From the IMG/VR virus record IMGVR_UViG_3300036851_000165, positions 1 through 39,144 of that record: DNA of 39,144 bases, one strand, 5' to 3'. This document shows, one piece after another, positions 1,300-32,417 of the stretch; position 1 is the stretch's first letter, and every line of letters starts with the position of its first letter. The position numbers and the translations under genes were made by a program. The DNA is from a virus. Under the pieces are notes generated by a model that searched no databases, was not told the origin of the DNA, and saw only the letters and a program-made list of their open reading frames with translations.

Positions 1300-1875
1300 A
1301 TGGCGCAACGTGTCACCAACTGGAAAGACGAAGCGATCGCCGCGCGTCTTGCTGATCTCTGGAGCGCGGGGCACTCCTGCAGCACCATCGCCCGCATGCT
1401 CGGCAACGGTGTCACACGGAACTCCGTGATCGGCGCCGTCTCGCGTGCGGGACTCCCCAAGCGGACGACGCTAGTTCGGCAGCGCCATACCAACCGCGCG
1501 CTCGGCTCTGCCATGGCCCGGCTGAAATCGGCCGAGGTCAAGAGCGCAGGCAAGTCATTCAACTTCGCAACCTCACCCAACATGGTTCGCAGCCCTGGCT
1601 TGGAGCCGCTTCCACTTCCAATGCCCGCAGCCGACGACGTGGCGCGGGTAAGCTTCGCTGATCTCGACACCAAGCACTGCAGGTGGCCGGTAGGTGAAAC
1701 CGGCAATGTGTCTCTCGACACCCCCATCTTCTGCGGCTTGGACCGCATACCCGGTGGCATCTCGTCTTACTGCCCCGGCCACCACGCCCGTGCCACCGTT
1801 CCAGTGAGGCCTCGCCCGCCGGCAGCGCCCATGGTCGCCGCCCCCGTCATCGAGAAGCAGTTGGAGGCGGCATAA
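1300..1875 (+). CDS. gcrA-like: GcrA-family cell-cycle regulator
   Basis: A 191-residue protein with both parts of the GcrA family. The N-terminal DNA-binding part has W-KDEAIAARLADLWSAGHS, then IARMLGNGVTRNSVIGAVSRAGLP (about residues 7-55). The C-terminal part has a zinc-like CRWP motif at 127, with further Cys at 145 and 158 and His at 161/162. In Caulobacter, GcrA binds sigma70 and activates promoters carrying CcrM-methylated GANTC sites. The middle of the chain is a proline-rich linker. It probably redirects host transcription during infection. Its stop overlaps the next ATG (TAATG), so the two are likely coupled. The upstream AAGGCAAGGCG gives only a weak Shine-Dalgarno. Function in the phage is inferred from family membership. 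Confidence 0.88.
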   Translation: MAQRVTNWKDEAIAARLADLWSAGHSCSTIARMLGNGVTRNSVIGAVSRAGLPKRTTLVRQRHTNRALGSAMARLKSAEVKSAGKSFNFATSPNMVRSPGLEPLPLPMPAADDVARVSFADLDTKHCRWPVGETGNVSLDTPIFCGLDRIPGGISSYCPGHHARATVPVRPRPPAAPMVAAPVIEKQLEAA

Positions 1876-7256: not shown

Positions 7257-7453
7257 TGGAGACGATCATCCAGAAGGAACGCCGCTTGCTGGCCTATCTC
7301 AGCCAAGCCCTGGTGCTGGCGGAAACCGGCCAGATGCCCATGCGAGAGGTCGAGGGTCGCCGTCACGATCTGCGCGAGTTCTACGCTGAAGTGTTCGGCG
7401 CCTCGATGCTCGCCAAGCGGGAGAAGCTTAGGGCGGGGGTGCTGGGGAGATGA
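7256..7453 (+). CDS. Small hypothetical protein
   Basis: 65 residues from ATG 7256 (TGATG overlap with the helicase stop). Predicted helical and charged (IIQKERRLLAYLSQALVLAE, then RRHDLREFYAEVFGAS). No family recognised. Its stop overlaps the methyltransferase start (ATGA), so it is coupled to both neighbours. Because it follows the helicase directly, a role as helicase partner or loader is possible but unsupported. Confidence 0.65.
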   Translation: METIIQKERRLLAYLSQALVLAETGQMPMREVEGRRHDLREFYAEVFGASMLAKREKLRAGVLGR

Positions 7454-10705: not shown

Positions 10706-10962
10706 GCGTCCTTTCTGTCGTTGAGAGGCTCCCCCAAGCGGTGGCCAATCGCGAGGTCGTTGAGACACTGGAATCATATCTTGCCGATGCCAAATCAGGC
10801 CGGATCGCATCGATGGCGATTGCGGCCATCACGGCCGATGGTGAGGCGCTGACGGTCGCGACCCGGACGGATGACCGCATGCGGCTCTTGGGGTCGCTCA
10901 CGCGCCTCATCGCACGTATCAACGCAACGATTGATGCAGACGACACGGAGGCAGCCGAGTGA
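10702..10962 (+). CDS. Conserved small phage protein
   Basis: 86 residues, alpha/beta: an opening helix (VVETLESYLADAKSG), then a strand IASMAIAAITADGEALTVAT and a helix MRLLGSLTRLIARINATI. The pattern (strand with A-I-A-x-x-x-x-D-G, then LLGSLxxL) recurs in many alphaproteobacterial phage hypotheticals. It is joined to both neighbours by 4-bp overlaps and immediately precedes the NusG-like gene through GTGA. Function unknown. Confidence 0.65.
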   Translation: MSVLSVVERLPQAVANREVVETLESYLADAKSGRIASMAIAAITADGEALTVATRTDDRMRLLGSLTRLIARINATIDADDTEAAE

Positions 10963-11498
10963 GCAATTGGTTCGTCCTGCAAGTCTTGCCAAGAATGGAG
11001 ATCACAGCCGAGAAACTCGTGAGGCGTCTCGGCTATCAGGCTATGGTACCGTACGAGGAAAAGCTCGTACGGTGTGGCAGGTCTCGCCATCCGCGTCCGT
11101 GGAAATGCGCCCTGTATCCTGGATACCTGTTCGCGAGCGGCCCAGAGTGGAGCCGCCTGTGGGACCACGTGAACGGAAAGCTCCCGGAAAGAGAGGTCGA
11201 TAACATTGCCGCCATCTACAGCTATCTCCACCCGGTGTGGACACCAATGCCGTACTTCCTGCCGGCGGCCGACGTGGAGTACTTGGTCAGCATCGCGGAT
11301 GGTAGGTATCAGCCTAATCCGGAGGAGCCTCCGAAGAAGCTGCAGGTAGGCGACAGGGTCATCTTGCCGGACGGCCCGATGCAGGGTTACGAGGGGACAG
11401 CTACGGAAATAAGTGGCGAAAACGTCACTGTTGACATCAAGAGAGAGAAAAACACCATCAAGATCAAGACGAAGCTTGCGAAGCTGGAAAAAGTGTGA
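10959..11498 (+). CDS. NusG/RfaH-family transcription antiterminator
   Basis: 179 residues from GTG 10959 (GTGA overlap with the previous stop). The NGN domain opens with the family hallmark NWFVLQVLPRMEITAEKLVR, then WKCALYPGYLFA near residue 50, equal to the R-x-x-x-x-F-P-G-Y-v-F strand of NusG. A KOW domain follows at about 126-160: LQVGDRVILPDGPMQGYEG, then TATEISGENVTVDI. NusG paralogues bind RNA polymerase and make it processive. As the last gene before the packaging/head genes it is placed like lambda Q, and probably controls late transcription through the leader at 11499-11729. Specialised paralogues (RfaH, LoaP) need a nucleic-acid signal; see the ops-like GGCGGTAG at 3871. Confidence 0.85.
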   Translation: MSNWFVLQVLPRMEITAEKLVRRLGYQAMVPYEEKLVRCGRSRHPRPWKCALYPGYLFASGPEWSRLWDHVNGKLPEREVDNIAAIYSYLHPVWTPMPYFLPAADVEYLVSIADGRYQPNPEEPPKKLQVGDRVILPDGPMQGYEGTATEISGENVTVDIKREKNTIKIKTKLAKLEKV

Positions 11499-18225: not shown

Positions 18226-18696
18226 ATGACACCCAAAGTCATCCGCACTCCAAATGGAGAATTCCTGCCGGCAGATTGGACCGGCAAGAACGAGTCCGGC
18301 ATTGAGCCGTTTGGGGATCGCATACTCATTCTTGGAGATACGTTCGCTCCCGAGAGCTCGGGCGGCATCAAATGGCCCGATGATCTGATTGAGCGCATGA
18401 CCGAGGCGGCAGAAACTGGCGTCCTCGTCGCCGTTGGCAGCGAGGCATGGGCCTGGAACAGCGATCGCACGCGGCGCTTTGAAGGGGAGAAGCCGGAGAT
18501 CGGACAGCGCATCATCTTTGAGCGCTACGCTGGGCAATACCATTTCGGCGCTGACGGTCGGCGGTACCGCATCATGGATGATCGCTGCGTCGGCGGCCTC
18601 TTCGCAGAGGACGCGGTGATTAGGACAGCACCGAAGCCGCAGGCTCCCGCGACCCTCACTAAGGTCACTAAGCCGCCGCTAGTCGCGGCGCGCTAA
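18226..18696 (+). CDS. GroES-like co-chaperonin
   Basis: 156 residues. From about residue 25 it follows the Cpn10 fold: IEPFGDRILILGDTFAPESS, GGIKWPDDL in the mobile-loop position, TGVLVAVGSEAW, then KPEIGQRIIFERYAGQYHF and RRYRIMDDRCVGGLFAEDAV. These match the GroES order (PLxDRVxV, GGI, G-x-V-x-A-V-G, V-K-x-G-D-x-V-x-F, YAG, ILxExDILA). The mobile loop (SSGGIKWPDD) is where GroES touches GroEL. Placed between portal and scaffold, it likely adapts host GroEL for folding capsid protein, as T4 gp31 does. The C-terminal 25 residues are an extra disordered tail. Identification is from pattern. Confidence 0.78.
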   Translation: MTPKVIRTPNGEFLPADWTGKNESGIEPFGDRILILGDTFAPESSGGIKWPDDLIERMTEAAETGVLVAVGSEAWAWNSDRTRRFEGEKPEIGQRIIFERYAGQYHFGADGRRYRIMDDRCVGGLFAEDAVIRTAPKPQAPATLTKVTKPPLVAAR

Positions 18697-26672: not shown

Positions 26673-27632
26673 ATGGCGGTCTCAGGTTCTTCTGATTTCA
26701 CGCGCACGCGCGATCAGATCATCCGCCGTGCCTTCCGGGTAATCAGCGTCGTCAAGTCCGGCGATACGCCGGGCGCACAGATCGTCACCGATGCAGCCGA
26801 AGCGCTCAACGCCATGGTGAAGCGCTGGCAAAAGAAGGGGCTGCACGTCTGGACGGTGACGGAGGCCACGCTGTTCCCGCAAGCGTCGCAGGTGCGCTAT
26901 GCTCTGGCCTCCGGCAGTGCCGACCATGCCACGGAGAGTTACGTCGCGACCGAGCTCACCGCGAGCGCGTCGTCTGGCGCCACCAGCATCACCGTGGACG
27001 CCATCACCGGCATATCCAGCGGCGACAACATCGGCACCGTGCTGGACGATGGCTCGATTCATTGGACGACCGTCAATGGTGCGCCGGCAGGATCGAATGT
27101 AACCCTCACGACCGGGCTTGACGATAGCGCCTCCGATGGGGCGGCGGTCTTCACCTACACCACCAAGATCGTCCGCCCGCTCAAGATCGTAGACGCGCGG
27201 CGCTTCAACATCGCCAGCCAGCTTGAGACGACGATATCGGAGACGCAGGGCAGCCTGATGGCGCGTCTCGACTACCAGGCGCTGCCGAACAAGGCGCAGA
27301 CCGGCACCATCAACAGGGCGTTCTACGATCCGCAGCGCGATACTGGCTATCTCTATCTGTGGCAGCCGCCGTCCATCGTTACCGACCTCGTCAAGTTCAC
27401 GTGGCACCGGCCGATCATGGACTTCGACAATGCGTCCGATAACCCGGACCTGCCGCAAGAGTGGTTCGACGCGCTGGTGTACAATCTTGCGATCTCCCTA
27501 TGTGATGAGTTCGACGTGCCGCTTGAGAAGCAGCAGAGCGTTGCGCTTAAGGCCGCCTCCTACTTGGAGGACGTGCAGGGCGATGACCGGGAAGGCGAGT
27601 CTCTCTACATGCAAGCCGATATGGGCTACTGA
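26673..27632 (+). CDS. P22 gp4-like tail accessory factor (head-tail adaptor)
   Basis: 319 residues. Opening helices (IIRRAFRVISVVKSGDTPGA, then VTDAAEALNAMVKRWQKKGL) are the adaptor helices of the gp4 family. A beta insert of about 100 residues follows (VDAITGISSGDNIGTVLDDG). The C-terminal helices are PQEWFDALVYNLAISLCDEF and the helix after it. It docks under the portal ring, closes the head after packaging and carries the tail hub. The next gene starts on its stop codon (TGATG), and that gene is the gp10-like partner, matching P22 order. Confidence 0.8.
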   Translation: MAVSGSSDFTRTRDQIIRRAFRVISVVKSGDTPGAQIVTDAAEALNAMVKRWQKKGLHVWTVTEATLFPQASQVRYALASGSADHATESYVATELTASASSGATSITVDAITGISSGDNIGTVLDDGSIHWTTVNGAPAGSNVTLTTGLDDSASDGAAVFTYTTKIVRPLKIVDARRFNIASQLETTISETQGSLMARLDYQALPNKAQTGTINRAFYDPQRDTGYLYLWQPPSIVTDLVKFTWHRPIMDFDNASDNPDLPQEWFDALVYNLAISLCDEFDVPLEKQQSVALKAASYLEDVQGDDREGESLYMQADMGY

Positions 27633-29074
27633 TGCCTCCCGTCCCCTTCGCTTCGCAATCCTATCGTCACGAAACCGCGCAGATCTCATCGCAGCGCGTC
27701 TTGAATTGCTATGCCGAGATGCAGCCGCCTGGCGCCAAGTCTCAGGTGACAGTGCACGGTGCTCCTGGCATCATCACTTACGCTACGTGCGGCGTCGGCC
27801 CCGTCCGCGGCGCGCATATGCTGGGTGGCGTGCTCTACGTCGTCTCTGGTGGGTTCCTCTACAGGGTTACCAACGATCCAACTCCGGTTGCGACCCAGCT
27901 CGGCGGCGTCATCTCCGGCTCTGGCGTGGTCTCGATGGCCGACAACGGTAACGAGATCATGATCGTCAACGGGAGCAACGGCTACCTGTACGACACGCTG
28001 AGCGGGTTCCGGCTGGTCACGGATACAGATTTCATTGCTGGCAGCACGGTTGCCTACTCTGACGGCTTCTTTTTGGTGCCGCGAGCAAACACCAATGAAT
28101 GGGCGCGGTCGGACTCGCTGGACGGCTCCTCCTGGAATGCGCTCGCGTTCGCCACCAAGGAATCCCAGTCCGATAATCTCCGCGCCGTCCTGAACATCAA
28201 TGAGGTGATCCACCTTCTGGGGGAGAAATCCTCCGAGCTCTGGGGCAACAACGGGGCGGCGAACTTCCCGTATCAGCGCGTCCCAGGCGGTACGCTGGAT
28301 CGCGGCACACTCGCCGCCTATGCCAATGCACGCGAGGACCAAACGCTGTTCATCCTCGGCAATGACCGCGTTGCCTACCGCATGAGCGGCACCCAGCTTG
28401 CCCGTATTTCGACGCATGCGATCGAACAGACGTGGCAGGGCTACACCGCGACCTCCGACTGCTTCGGCCTCGCCTATCCCTGGAACGGCCACAAGTTTGT
28501 AGTCTTCACATTCCCGACCCAGCAAGCGGCGCTTGGGGACACGACCTCCTGGAGCTTCGACATCTCCTCCGGCCTCTGGCATGAGCGGCTGTCCTATGAT
28601 TTCAACGGTACGCCTCTTGGGCGCTGGCGCGGGAACATTGCGATTGAGGCCTACGGCAGGATCCTGATCGGCGACGCCTTCTCCGGCAAGATCGGCTATC
28701 TCAGCAAGGAGGTTACAACCGAGTTCGATTGCCCGATGCGGTGGACGGCAACGAGCCCGCCCTATGGGGCCGGCGACAAGTCCCTGTTCAACTCCAACCT
28801 CACGCTCGACATGGAGGCTGGCGTCGGTCTTTCGAGCGGCCAGGGGTCTGACCCACAGATCATGCTCGACGTGTCCGACGACGGCGGCAAGACCTGGAGT
28901 TCGGTGCAGCACTGGTCCTCCATGGGTGCTATGGGCGCCTTCAAGACGTGGGTGCGCTGGATGCAACTCGGGCGCACGGAGAAGGGCGGAACACGGGTCT
29001 ACCGCGTGACGGTCTCCGACCCGGTGCGCCGGACGATCATCGGGGCTTACGCCAATATGCATCCGGGGCTGTAG
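27632..29074 (+). CDS. P22 gp10-like packaged-DNA stabilisation protein (tail hub)
   Basis: 480 residues, all beta. The opening PFASQSYRHETAQISSQRVL, NCYAEMQPPGAKSQVTVHG and APGI pattern is the signature of the gp10 family (phage stabilisation protein), followed by blade-like repeats (GGVLYVVSGGFLYRV, DNGNEIMIVNGSNGYLY, DTTSWSFDISSGLWHERLSY). Six copies form the tail tube/hub that keeps packaged DNA in and holds the fibre or spike proteins. Order after the gp4-like gene supports the call. Confidence 0.83.
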   Translation: MPPVPFASQSYRHETAQISSQRVLNCYAEMQPPGAKSQVTVHGAPGIITYATCGVGPVRGAHMLGGVLYVVSGGFLYRVTNDPTPVATQLGGVISGSGVVSMADNGNEIMIVNGSNGYLYDTLSGFRLVTDTDFIAGSTVAYSDGFFLVPRANTNEWARSDSLDGSSWNALAFATKESQSDNLRAVLNINEVIHLLGEKSSELWGNNGAANFPYQRVPGGTLDRGTLAAYANAREDQTLFILGNDRVAYRMSGTQLARISTHAIEQTWQGYTATSDCFGLAYPWNGHKFVVFTFPTQQAALGDTTSWSFDISSGLWHERLSYDFNGTPLGRWRGNIAIEAYGRILIGDAFSGKIGYLSKEVTTEFDCPMRWTATSPPYGAGDKSLFNSNLTLDMEAGVGLSSGQGSDPQIMLDVSDDGGKTWSSVQHWSSMGAMGAFKTWVRWMQLGRTEKGGTRVYRVTVSDPVRRTIIGAYANMHPGL

Positions 29075-29078
29075 GTCT

Positions 29079-30266
29079 ATGGCTGATCCGCTCCTTGATG
29101 TGTGGTGGGCTCAGCGCCCGTCAATGGACGACATCACCCTTGCGGGCCGCTCGATCCGCCGTCCAACAGAATCAGTCCTCGGCCAGGCTCCTCCACCTTC
29201 GAGTGGCCAACGCTTCGCTAATTGGCTAACCACTTGGGGGATGCCCAGGTGGCAGGCGGAACGCATCGGGGCGCTGGTGCCGTGGACGCCCCCTGGGGCA
29301 GCCTACGATTCAGGTCAGACGATCGGGGCAGGGATTGAGGAGGGCAGCCCTGGCACGGTCGGGCTCGGAACGCTTGGCGTGCTGGCGTCGCTGCCGTTTG
29401 CTGTGCGGCCTCCGGTGCGACCGGCTACGCGCATTGCGAGCCCGATCCGGGCCTACCATGGCTCGCCGCACCAGTTCGACGAGTTCGATATCTCCCGCAT
29501 AGGGACCGGGGAGGGGGCGCAGGCCTACGGGCATGGGCTGTACTTCGCGGAGGCGGAGCCGGTGGCGCGGAGCTATCGTGACCGGCTTACAGGCGATGCC
29601 ATTGCAAGCGGAAGACTCCCGGCGCCGACATTGAACGGCCGTCCACTTTTTAATGCCGATGACGAATTTGTCGGTGCCACAGGTAATGCGTTCCTGGACA
29701 GAGTATTTCGTAATGAGGCATTCGACGCATTCGCCGCTAGAGATACGCTGCGGGCTTACATAGAACGAGGCGGTGCACGAATCAGCCAAGAGGCTGCTGC
29801 AGCGCTTCGGCATCTTGATGCCTTGGAGGACTCCGGGGCACTCTTGCCGCGCGGCCACATGTACGAGGTCGCCCTCCACGCCCGGCCGGAGCAGTTCCTG
29901 GATTGGGATGCGCCGCTGAGCAGGCAACAGCCTGGAGTGCGCGAGGCTCTTGGTAGAGTGCTCGCTGAGGCAAGGGGTGGGCCGGTGGGTGACTCGTTCT
30001 ATGGTAGCTTCGGCGAAAGCGGATCAGGTCTCTACAATCTCGTCTCAGCATGGACCCGTCATCATCCTGAATCCACAGCAGGCGCCCTGCGCGGCGCAGG
30101 CATCCCAGGCATCCGCTATCTCGACCAAGGCTCCAGGACCGCAGGCGCCGGCTCCCACAACTACGTCGTCCTCGACCCGTCCATCATCGAGATCCTGCGG
30201 CGGTACGGTATCCTTGGTCCGATCGCGGGGATAGGGGCAGCGTCGACGCTGATGGGCGACCAATAA
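29079..30266 (+). CDS. Putative virion-delivered ADP-ribosyltransferase
   Basis: 395 residues. The ADP-ribosyltransferase-like core begins IRAYHGSPHQFDEFDISRIG (His at 127), then GTGEGAQAYGHGLYFAEAEP, and ends near 341-365 with GIPGIRYLDQGSR and SHNYVVLD. YHGS-F-FD followed by GxGLYFA is the hallmark of the ART-like domain found in phage polyvalent proteins. A variable middle region (165-290) includes an ALHARPEQFLDWDAPLSRQQ helix. The N-terminal 14 residues match those of the protein at 14982. It sits among ejection-protein genes, so it may be packaged and injected to modify host proteins, as T4 Alt is. The third catalytic residue cannot be assigned with confidence. Delivery is inference. 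Confidence 0.7.
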   Translation: MADPLLDVWWAQRPSMDDITLAGRSIRRPTESVLGQAPPPSSGQRFANWLTTWGMPRWQAERIGALVPWTPPGAAYDSGQTIGAGIEEGSPGTVGLGTLGVLASLPFAVRPPVRPATRIASPIRAYHGSPHQFDEFDISRIGTGEGAQAYGHGLYFAEAEPVARSYRDRLTGDAIASGRLPAPTLNGRPLFNADDEFVGATGNAFLDRVFRNEAFDAFAARDTLRAYIERGGARISQEAAAALRHLDALEDSGALLPRGHMYEVALHARPEQFLDWDAPLSRQQPGVREALGRVLAEARGGPVGDSFYGSFGESGSGLYNLVSAWTRHHPESTAGALRGAGIPGIRYLDQGSRTAGAGSHNYVVLDPSIIEILRRYGILGPIAGIGAASTLMGDQ

Positions 30267-30269
30267 GCC

Positions 30270-30731
30270 ATGGCCATCCCCGCCGCAGCAAAACCAACGC
30301 CGATCCCCAGGATCGATGTCAGCACGAGGTTGGTCGATCCGAAAACCGGCGTGCCGGATACCCACGGCCTCCAGAGGATCGAGCGCTTGCGCGGGTACGT
30401 GTCCGGCATGGGGCGGTGTATCCCCTGCGCTGCATCTGGAACCAACGTCATCACGCTTACCCCAAACGGTCACGGCAGCGAGGACGGAGAGGCGCCAGTC
30501 ATCGAGAAATACGTCTTCGGTGACTCGTATCTGTTCTGGGCGGCGGAGACCTCTACCGGCGATGTGACGGCGACCGTGGTGCCCAAGACCGGGACTTTGT
30601 CAACGCTCAAGGTCTTCGTCGATGACGGCGCAGCGCAGGCGACAACGGGCGATGTGGTGCAGAACTCGGTGTACGAGGCGTTCTATGCCCCGCACCTCGA
30701 CGCGAACAACGGTGGCCTAGTCCTCAAGTAG
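30270..30731 (+). CDS. Small tail/structural protein
   Basis: 153 residues: PRIDVSTRLVDPKTGVPDTH, then GLQRIERLRG, and a beta region (RCIPCAASGTNVITLTPNGH, SYLFWAAETSTGDVTATVVP, LSTLKVFVDDGAAQATTGDV). It ends NNGGLVLK. Such fibre-like beta proteins are common in podoviral tail clusters. Its 3' end overlaps the leftward gene at 30724-30930 by 8 bp. Function unknown, virion component likely. Confidence 0.65.
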   Translation: MAIPAAAKPTPIPRIDVSTRLVDPKTGVPDTHGLQRIERLRGYVSGMGRCIPCAASGTNVITLTPNGHGSEDGEAPVIEKYVFGDSYLFWAAETSTGDVTATVVPKTGTLSTLKVFVDDGAAQATTGDVVQNSVYEAFYAPHLDANNGGLVLK

Positions 30732-30963: not shown

Positions 30964-31734
30964 ATGCAAGTTGACATCCAGCGCCACACCGAAGCCGCGC
31001 ACCTCAACAGCATCCTGAACCATCCCGAGGTTCACGCCAGCGTAGCTTATGACGACAAGCCGCTCGACCTGACCCCTGTCATGGAGAGTCCCAACGTCAT
31101 CGCCTTATACGGCGAGCACGGCGGGCAGGTTTATCACCGGCTGCAGCCGGGTCTCTTTGAGGCGCACAGCGCTTTCAAGCCAGAGGGGCGGGGAGAGTGG
31201 GCGCTTGCGGCGACCAACGCGACCCTGAAATGGATCTTCACCCGCACTGAGGCCGTTGAAATCGTCACGCGCGTGCCGGCTGGAAACGTTGCAGCGAAGG
31301 CGCTCGCGAAATCCATCGGCGGCGTCCACGATTGCACGCTTCCTCATGGGTGGGTCAAGGACGGAGCGCCGATCCCCGCCGACGTTTTCAGTCTCACCAT
31401 TCAAGGCTGGATGAAATCCGCACCGACCCTTGCAGAGAGAGGGAAATGGTTCCACGCGCGGCTGGATGCTGAGTTCGACCGGCTTGGAATTTCAGAGCCG
31501 CCGCATGACGATTGCATCGTCCATGACAGGTATGTCGGCGCCGCCTGTGAAATGATGTTCGGCGGCCAGCCCGACAAGGCCTGTGTCTTCTACAACAGGG
31601 TGGGCGCGCTCGCCGGCTGGCATCCCATCGCGGTCGCCAACTATGACCCCCTCGTGGTCAACATCGGCTCCGCAATCCTCGTGATGTGCGGCGACGATTT
31701 CTTCGTGGTCCCGCCGCAGAAGTCCGCAGCCTGA
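30964..31734 (+). CDS. GNAT-like acetyltransferase family phage protein
   Basis: 256 residues. HTEAAHLNSILNHPEVHASV, then VIALYGEHGGQVYHRLQPGL, FEAHSAFKPEGRGEWALAAT, WIFTRTEAVEIVTRVPAGNV and AAKALAKSIGGVHDC follow the GNAT order: strand, strand, V-helix with NxxAxxLxxxxG for acetyl-CoA. I know this family from phage tail/ejection regions, where it is usually annotated as hypothetical or GNAT-like. The last 90 residues are an added domain (PHDDCIVHDRYVGAACEMMF). It may be a virion protein or modify a host or phage protein; substrate unknown. GAAGGA lies 12 nt before the ATG. Confidence 0.65.
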   Translation: MQVDIQRHTEAAHLNSILNHPEVHASVAYDDKPLDLTPVMESPNVIALYGEHGGQVYHRLQPGLFEAHSAFKPEGRGEWALAATNATLKWIFTRTEAVEIVTRVPAGNVAAKALAKSIGGVHDCTLPHGWVKDGAPIPADVFSLTIQGWMKSAPTLAERGKWFHARLDAEFDRLGISEPPHDDCIVHDRYVGAACEMMFGGQPDKACVFYNRVGALAGWHPIAVANYDPLVVNIGSAILVMCGDDFFVVPPQKSAA

Positions 31735-31748
31735 AAGGAAAATCCACC

Positions 31749-32417
31749 GTGCCTACAGCGGCGATAATCGGCGGCGCCACACTAGGATCTGCCGTCATCG
31801 GGTCAAACGCCGCCCAGAGCGCGGCCAAGACCCAGGCGCGGGTAGCCAATCAAGCCCGCGCGGACATGCAGCCGTTCATGATCCCCGGTCAGGGGGCCAT
31901 GGCGTCGCTTGCGCAGCTCTACGGCATCAATCCTCAGACGGGAGCCTATGATCCGAACCAGGCTTTTAACGAGGCCTCGCTGCAGGCGTTTCAGCGGTCT
32001 CCAGACTATCAGTTCGCTCTGCAGGAAGGCCTCGGGGCGGTGGAGAACAGCCAAGCCGGGCGGGGAATGCTCAGGTCTGGGAACACCCTTCGCGCGCTCA
32101 CGGAGTTCGGTCAAGGCCTCGCATCGCAGCAGTTCGGCAACTACCGGGGCGCGCTTACGCAGCTCGCCAGCATTGGAGCGGGAGCAGCCGGCGGTGCCGG
32201 CCAATCTGCGTTGCAGGCGGGCGCGGCGCAGGCGTCCGGCATCGTCGGAGCCGGGAACGCGTGGTCGGGCGCTCTCGGCTCTCTCGGCAACTACGCCATG
32301 ATGCAGCAGCAGCAGGCGCAGCAACAGAGCTTAATCCAGAGCCTGCTTCGGCCGTCGAGCTATACACCGACTGCGCCGCCTCCGGGCGTCGGAAACTGGG
32401 GTCTGCGTCCCGTCTAG
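31749..32417 (+). CDS. P22 gp7-like DNA ejection protein
   Basis: 222 residues from GTG 31749 (AAAGGA about 10 nt upstream). The N-terminus is a small-residue helix (AIIGGATLGSAVIGSNAAQS). Then come MIPGQGAMASLAQLYGINPQ, FQRSPDYQFALQEGLGAVEN, SQAGRGMLRSGNTLRAL and FGNYRGALTQLASIGAGAAG, the conserved pattern of podoviral gp7-like internal proteins, and a Gln-rich end. It should leave the virion with the DNA and help cross the envelope. It is first in the row of ejection genes. Confidence 0.75.
   Translation: MPTAAIIGGATLGSAVIGSNAAQSAAKTQARVANQARADMQPFMIPGQGAMASLAQLYGINPQTGAYDPNQAFNEASLQAFQRSPDYQFALQEGLGAVENSQAGRGMLRSGNTLRALTEFGQGLASQQFGNYRGALTQLASIGAGAAGGAGQSALQAGAAQASGIVGAGNAWSGALGSLGNYAMMQQQQAQQQSLIQSLLRPSSYTPTAPPPGVGNWGLRPV

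What the first reader, a model, noticed from the sequence alone, without database searches (positions are those of the whole stretch)
29079..30266. ADP-ribosyltransferase-like effector encoded among tail and ejection genes
YHGSPHQFDEFD with GTGEGAQAYGHGLYFAE is an ART-like signature of polyvalent phage proteins. The gene lies between the gp10-like hub and the ejection proteins, so the product may enter the host with the DNA and modify host proteins, as T4 Alt does, but in a small temperate podovirus.
Basis: partly seen in the sequence, partly recalled or inferred. Interest (0 to 1): 0.7.

Follow-up and report, generated by a model that had tools for sequence, protein, structure and literature searches.

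The report
Virion-module phage ADP-ribosyltransferase-like gene
A short-tailed phage of an alphaproteobacterium carries, among the genes for its tail and DNA-ejection machinery, a gene for an ADP-ribosyltransferase-like enzyme that is probably packed into the particle and injected with the DNA; it belongs to a widespread, already proposed class of phage effectors, so it is a good example rather than a new kind.

Summary
ORF 29079-30266 (+) encodes 395 aa with both motifs at the stated places (H127, Y155). A profile built without it scores 255 bits (E 9e-77); the best of 2,000 shuffles scores 2.9. It is a divergent member of Pfam ART-PolyVal: 27.1 bits against a cut-off of 31.2, matching only the N-terminal half, while two of seven large relatives or related late proteins that I scanned pass. 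More than 590 viral loci encode relatives. AlphaFold gives a confident core. A compact relative's model matches, apart from weak ART-fold toxins and PARPs, a chain of the cyanophage A4 pre-ejectosome. Relatives sit beside portal, terminase or gp10 genes, or inside large late proteins. The closest relative in the tree is fused to an SLT transglycosylase beside a portal gene. Virion packaging and injection are therefore likely but not shown. The idea was published in 2017 (PMC5512222), with a podovirus as its prototype. T4 Alt is an analogue of another clade (R-S-E, not H-Y-D). "Temperate" is unsupported: no integrase was found. The third catalytic residue is unsettled: D349 is invariant, D366 is not, and the PARP-glutamate position appears to be Asn361. 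Target, activity and virion presence remain untested. New member of a known kind.

The parts
29079..30266 (+). ORF, 395 aa, ART-PolyVal-like protein
29079..29438 (+). variable N-terminal region (aa 1-120); helices 42-52 and 57-66, the rest mostly disordered in the model; little conserved among relatives
29445..30206 (+). ART-like core, aa 123-376; strands 123-129, 154-157, 260-266, 344-347, 361-364, 370-376
   Evidence: AlphaFold2, blocks mostly pLDDT 80-97; fold matches
29457..29459 (+). H127, motif I (HGS), invariant in 73 of 73
29541..29543 (+). Y155, motif II (YFA), invariant in 73 of 73
29577..29855 (+). variable helical insert, aa 167-259, between strands 2 and 3
30123..30125 (+). D349, invariant in 73 of 73; candidate third catalytic residue
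30159..30161 (+). N361, invariant; appears by eye to sit where PARPs have the motif III Glu
   Evidence: motif III described in PMC7955679; alignment by eye
30174..30176 (+). D366, Asp in 61 of 73; alternative third catalytic residue
26673..27632 (+). gp4-like head-tail adaptor
27632..29074 (+). gp10-like hub / head closure Hc3, stop 4 bp before the ART start codon
30270..30731 (+). 153-aa protein of unknown function, starts 3 bp after the ART stop codon
30964..31734 (+). P22 gp14 / GNAT-like head morphogenesis protein
31686..32417 (+). gp7-like DNA ejection protein (phrog_598)

Best explanation
The gene encodes a stand-alone ART-PolyVal-type enzyme, made late with the tail hub, packed into the virion core with the ejection proteins, and released into the host at infection. 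There it would use host NAD+ to modify (most likely mono-ADP-ribosylate) host macromolecules and favour the incoming phage. Shown here: the gene, the family, the predicted ART-like fold, conserved His and Tyr, and the virion-module context. Inferred: packaging, injection, NAD use and modification of host protein. The target is unknown.
For: ART-PolyVal match in this protein and in 14 of 21 family members. H127, Y155, D349 and N361 are invariant in 73 sequences. The AlphaFold core is confident. There are 29 viral fold matches at E<=1e-3, several of them named ART-PolyVal. The compact relative's model matches chain B of the cyanophage A4 pre-ejectosome (9k3a, E 5.5e-4, prob 1.00), and weakly MbcT, tankyrase 2, NatT and diphtheria toxin, all ART-fold. 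That A4 chain carries YHGT...GTYFS...TLVINPDAV. Neighbours of relatives: at least 12 portal, 9 terminase and 8 head-tail adaptor proteins among 70 upstream genes, with scaffold and portal genes downstream. L061 has the same gp10-ART-ejection order. The sister in the tree (98/80 support), L045, is fused to an SLT transglycosylase beside a portal gene. L040 carries a phage lysozyme domain and L003 a PBECR5 nuclease domain.
Against: The protein scores under the Pfam cut-off and only its N-terminal half aligns. The model of the window protein itself matches no solved structure. The A4 similarity is by fold and motif only; profile comparison is not significant. The PARP Glu position appears to be Asn here. 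No virion proteomics for this phage. No conserved hydrophobic or packaging signal was found.
Confidence: 0.62

Rival explanations
1. It is an injected or late-acting NAD+-degrading enzyme rather than a transferase: it depletes or re-routes NAD+, for example against NAD-dependent defences.
For: Besides the A4 ejectosome chain, two of the ART-fold matches of the compact model are MbcT and NatT, toxins known (from general knowledge) to consume NAD+ without transferring it to protein; an Asn at the apparent PARP Glu position would fit weak transfer.
Against: Those matches are weak (E 0.1-0.6), and tankyrase 2, a transferase, matches about as well. A released NADase would harm the phage's own host early.
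Confidence: 0.18
2. It is made late but acts in the producing cell (host take-over, exclusion of other phages) and is not packaged.
For: Late-operon position alone would fit either; virion presence is not measured for this phage.
Against: Relatives are domains of large late proteins with virion peptidoglycan hydrolases, and an ART-like fold sits in the solved A4 pre-ejectosome.
Confidence: 0.13
3. It is a catalytically dead ART fold used as a structural part of the ejectosome.
For: The apparent motif III Glu is Asn; a related fold is a built-in part of the A4 pre-ejectosome.
Against: His, Tyr and a nearby Asp are invariant in 73 divergent sequences. The gene moves between sites and fusions, unlike a fixed structural part.
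Confidence: 0.07

Closest known systems
ART-PolyVal (Pfam PF18760; polyvalent-protein ARTs, Tox-ART-HYD2 clade; Iyer et al. 2017, PMC5512222)
   Same: HGS / YF motifs, ART-like fold, phage late-gene and multidomain context, proposed virion delivery
   Different: stand-alone; about 90-residue helical insert; C-terminal half (AGIPGIKYLDQGSR...NYVVFD) not covered by the Pfam match; scores below the curated cut-off
phiGT1 gene 5 (QLB38217.1, Sulfitobacter podovirus) and BAR32501.1
   Same: stand-alone homologue (35% identity over aa 123-376) in the head-tail module of an alphaproteobacterial podovirus; BAR32501 is cited in Iyer 2017
   Different: lies between portal and scaffold, not after gp10; phiGT1 is lytic
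Cyanophage A-4(L) ORF27 (PDB 9k3a chain B, pre-ejectosome)
   Same: ART-like fold and motifs inside a podoviral ejection complex
   Different: domain of a 1717-aa protein; no significant sequence similarity to this family; activity not known to me
T4 Alt
   Same: virion-carried, injected ADP-ribosyltransferase as functional analogue
   Different: Alt/VIP2 clade with an R-S-E site; myovirus

Membership tests
ART-PolyVal / Tox-ART-HYD2 | profile match above the curated cut-off | tested here: not met
   27.1 of 31.2 bits for this protein. Among the seven large relatives or related late proteins scanned, L003 (35 bits) and Tunturi_5 gp273 (145 bits, whole-protein score that includes a canonical second domain) pass; L054, L040, L045, L051 and vir555 do not.
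ART-PolyVal / Tox-ART-HYD2 | His in strand 1 | tested here: met
   H127 in strand 123-129, invariant 73/73
ART-PolyVal / Tox-ART-HYD2 | Tyr in strand 2 | tested here: met
   Y155 in strand 154-157, invariant 73/73
ART-PolyVal / Tox-ART-HYD2 | Asp in strand 5 | tested here: inconclusive
   D366 after strand 361-364 is Asp in only 61/73; D349 after strand 344-347 is invariant; active-site distances could not be measured
ART-PolyVal / Tox-ART-HYD2 | ART fold | tested here: met
   predicted only: viral ART-PolyVal models; solved ART folds by a relative's model, weak except 9k3a
ART-PolyVal / Tox-ART-HYD2 | NAD-dependent activity | not testable with these tools
   needs purified protein
T4 Alt (Alt/VIP2) | R-S-E active site | tested here: not met
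   HGS and YFA motifs instead
Virion-injected effector | present in the virion | not testable with these tools
   phiGT1 virion mass spectrometry exists (PMC10386132 Fig. 1, Table S3) but the supplement was not readable here
PARP-type H-Y-E | Glu in motif III | tested here: not met
   apparent equivalent is N361, invariant (placement by eye)

The most novel reading that the evidence does not exclude
A large, so far unmodelled ART subfamily (helical insert between strands 2 and 3, invariant Asn at the apparent PARP Glu position, invariant D349) that has become a mobile cargo of podoviral ejectosomes, found both alone and fused to virion peptidoglycan hydrolases, with a chemistry or target differing from Alt and from canonical ART-PolyVal.
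Probability: 0.3. Interest if true: 0.55.

Novelty: new member of a known kind. Interest (0 to 1): 0.38.

Why it matters
A 395-aa stand-alone version is far easier to express and delete than the giant polyvalent proteins, so it offers a direct test of the 2017 proposal that such ARTs are injected to modify the host. The phiGT1 homologue is in an isolated phage with virion proteomics already done.

Tried and rejected
Membrane or packaging signal in the N- or C-terminal tail: 13 of 49 relatives have a hydrophobic N-terminal stretch, so not a family feature. Sequence search against solved structures: nothing relevant. Fold search with the window model against PDB: nothing; the compact relative L026 was used instead. 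Profile comparison with the A4 domain: not significant. Profile against the published prototype (RPP1 vRNAP): only 9.2 bits, at the expected ART segment, so kinship with the prototype is not shown directly. Prophage copies: one short contig of a Rhodospirillales MAG in the genome collection, and no further hit in 385 genomes of that class, a search that scores few candidates per genome. dN/dS from few close pairs: 0.10-0.32 in the more diverged ones, about 0.8-1.1 in pairs with dS below 0.06; not used as evidence. A4 ORF28 first taken for the 9k3a chain; it is ORF27.

Full report
What is there. It starts 4 bp after the stop of the gp10-like hub gene, and the next ORF starts 3 bp after its own stop, so it looks co-translated with the tail genes. 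The window reads as a P22-like late block: large terminase 12683, portal 15632, GroES-like 18226, major head protein 20866, gp4-like adaptor 26673, gp10-like hub 27632, the ART gene, a 153-aa ORF, a gp14/GNAT-like gene, a gp7-like ejection gene and two large late genes. A GcrA gene points to an alphaproteobacterial host. No integrase family turned up in the ORFs scanned, so 'temperate' is not supported.

Is it an ART? By Pfam the protein matches ART-PolyVal at 27.1 bits, under the cut-off of 31.2, and only over profile positions 5-46. Of 21 family members, 14 match that family at E<=0.01. Of the seven large relatives or related late proteins scanned singly, L003 (35 bits) and Tunturi_5 gp273 (145 bits, which includes a second, canonical domain) pass the cut-off, while L054, L040, L045, L051 and vir555 do not. 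The family is large: 596 of the first 600 viral stretches examined encode relatives. In 73 aligned sequences H127, Y155, E158, Y262, D349, S352 and N361 never vary, while D366 is Asp in 61. A profile built without the window protein gives it 255 bits; the best of 2,000 shuffles gets 2.9.

Structure. AlphaFold2 on the 73-row alignment gives mean pLDDT 74.9; the core is mostly 80-97 and the N-terminal 120 residues are largely disordered. That model finds 29 viral models at E<=1e-3, several named ART-PolyVal, but no solved structure. The core of a compact relative, L026 (pLDDT 84.2, pTM 0.80), finds one solved chain at E<=1e-3: 9k3a_B of the cyanophage A4 pre-ejectosome (E 5.5e-4). Weaker matches include MbcT, tankyrase 2, NatT, diphtheria toxin and a RES toxin, all known to me as ART folds, among unrelated acetyltransferases. 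9k3a_B is ORF27 of Anabaena phage A-4L, whose residues from 1425 read YHGT...GTYFS...TLVINPDAV. Pfam finds no ART there and profile comparison is not significant, so this is resemblance of fold and motif only.

Context. In 32 loci a homologue of a window late gene lies near the ART gene, 34 matches in all, every one on the same strand; L061 has the window's order gp10, ART, ejection gene, while in L068 and L081 the ART gene precedes gp10. Among 70 upstream neighbours at least 12 match a portal family, 9 a terminase family and 8 a head-tail adaptor family; scaffold and portal families lead downstream. Neighbours were chosen by a simple ORF rule, and some loci are near-copies. The domain also lies inside late proteins of 650 to about 3,100 aa, with an SLT transglycosylase (L045), a phage lysozyme (L040) or a PBECR5 nuclease domain (L003, L054). 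On the tree the window protein pairs with L045 (98/80), and change between stand-alone and multidomain forms is forced several times by well-supported branches; the bootstrap had not fully settled.

How it likely works. The simplest reading is a late-made enzyme carried in the virion core and released with the DNA. This is inferred from context, fusions and the A4 structure; no virion data for this phage exist here. phiGT1 carries a homologue (gene 5, 35% identity) and its virion was analysed by mass spectrometry (PMC10386132), but the result for gene 5 is in a figure and a supplement that I could not read. The chemistry is open: the position of the PARP glutamate appears, by eye, to be Asn361, which would argue against poly-ADP-ribosylation, and the third catalytic residue may be D349 or D366.

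What is known. Iyer et al. 2017 (PMC5512222) described these ARTs as the commonest protein-modifying domain of polyvalent proteins, gave the H-Y-D site, set them apart from T4 Alt (R-S-E) and proposed injection. Their prototype is in a podovirus of Roseovarius; my profile sees that prototype's ART only at 9.2 bits. The stand-alone form, the insert and the uncovered C-terminal half suggest a divergent subfamily; I file it as a new member of a known kind.

Noticed in passing
window 1300-1875: GcrA cell-cycle regulator gene (Pfam E 1e-21), with two DNA methyltransferase-like genes at 7450 and 8736; suggests an alphaproteobacterial host.
   Followed up: partly
window 18226-18696: GroES-like co-chaperonin gene between portal and the head genes.
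   Followed up: no
window 30270-30731: 153-aa ORF directly after the ART gene, no PHROG or Pfam match; sits where P22 has its tail needle gene (P22 order from memory).
   Followed up: no
window 10959-11498: NusG/antiterminator-like gene.
   Followed up: no
L029 (Tunturi_5 gp273): One protein holds a canonical ART-PolyVal domain, GNAT, NUDIX and a second ART of the window's subfamily.
   Followed up: partly
L114 (Anabaena phage A-4L ORF27, residues from 1425): ART-like motifs in a solved pre-ejectosome protein that Pfam does not detect.
   Followed up: partly
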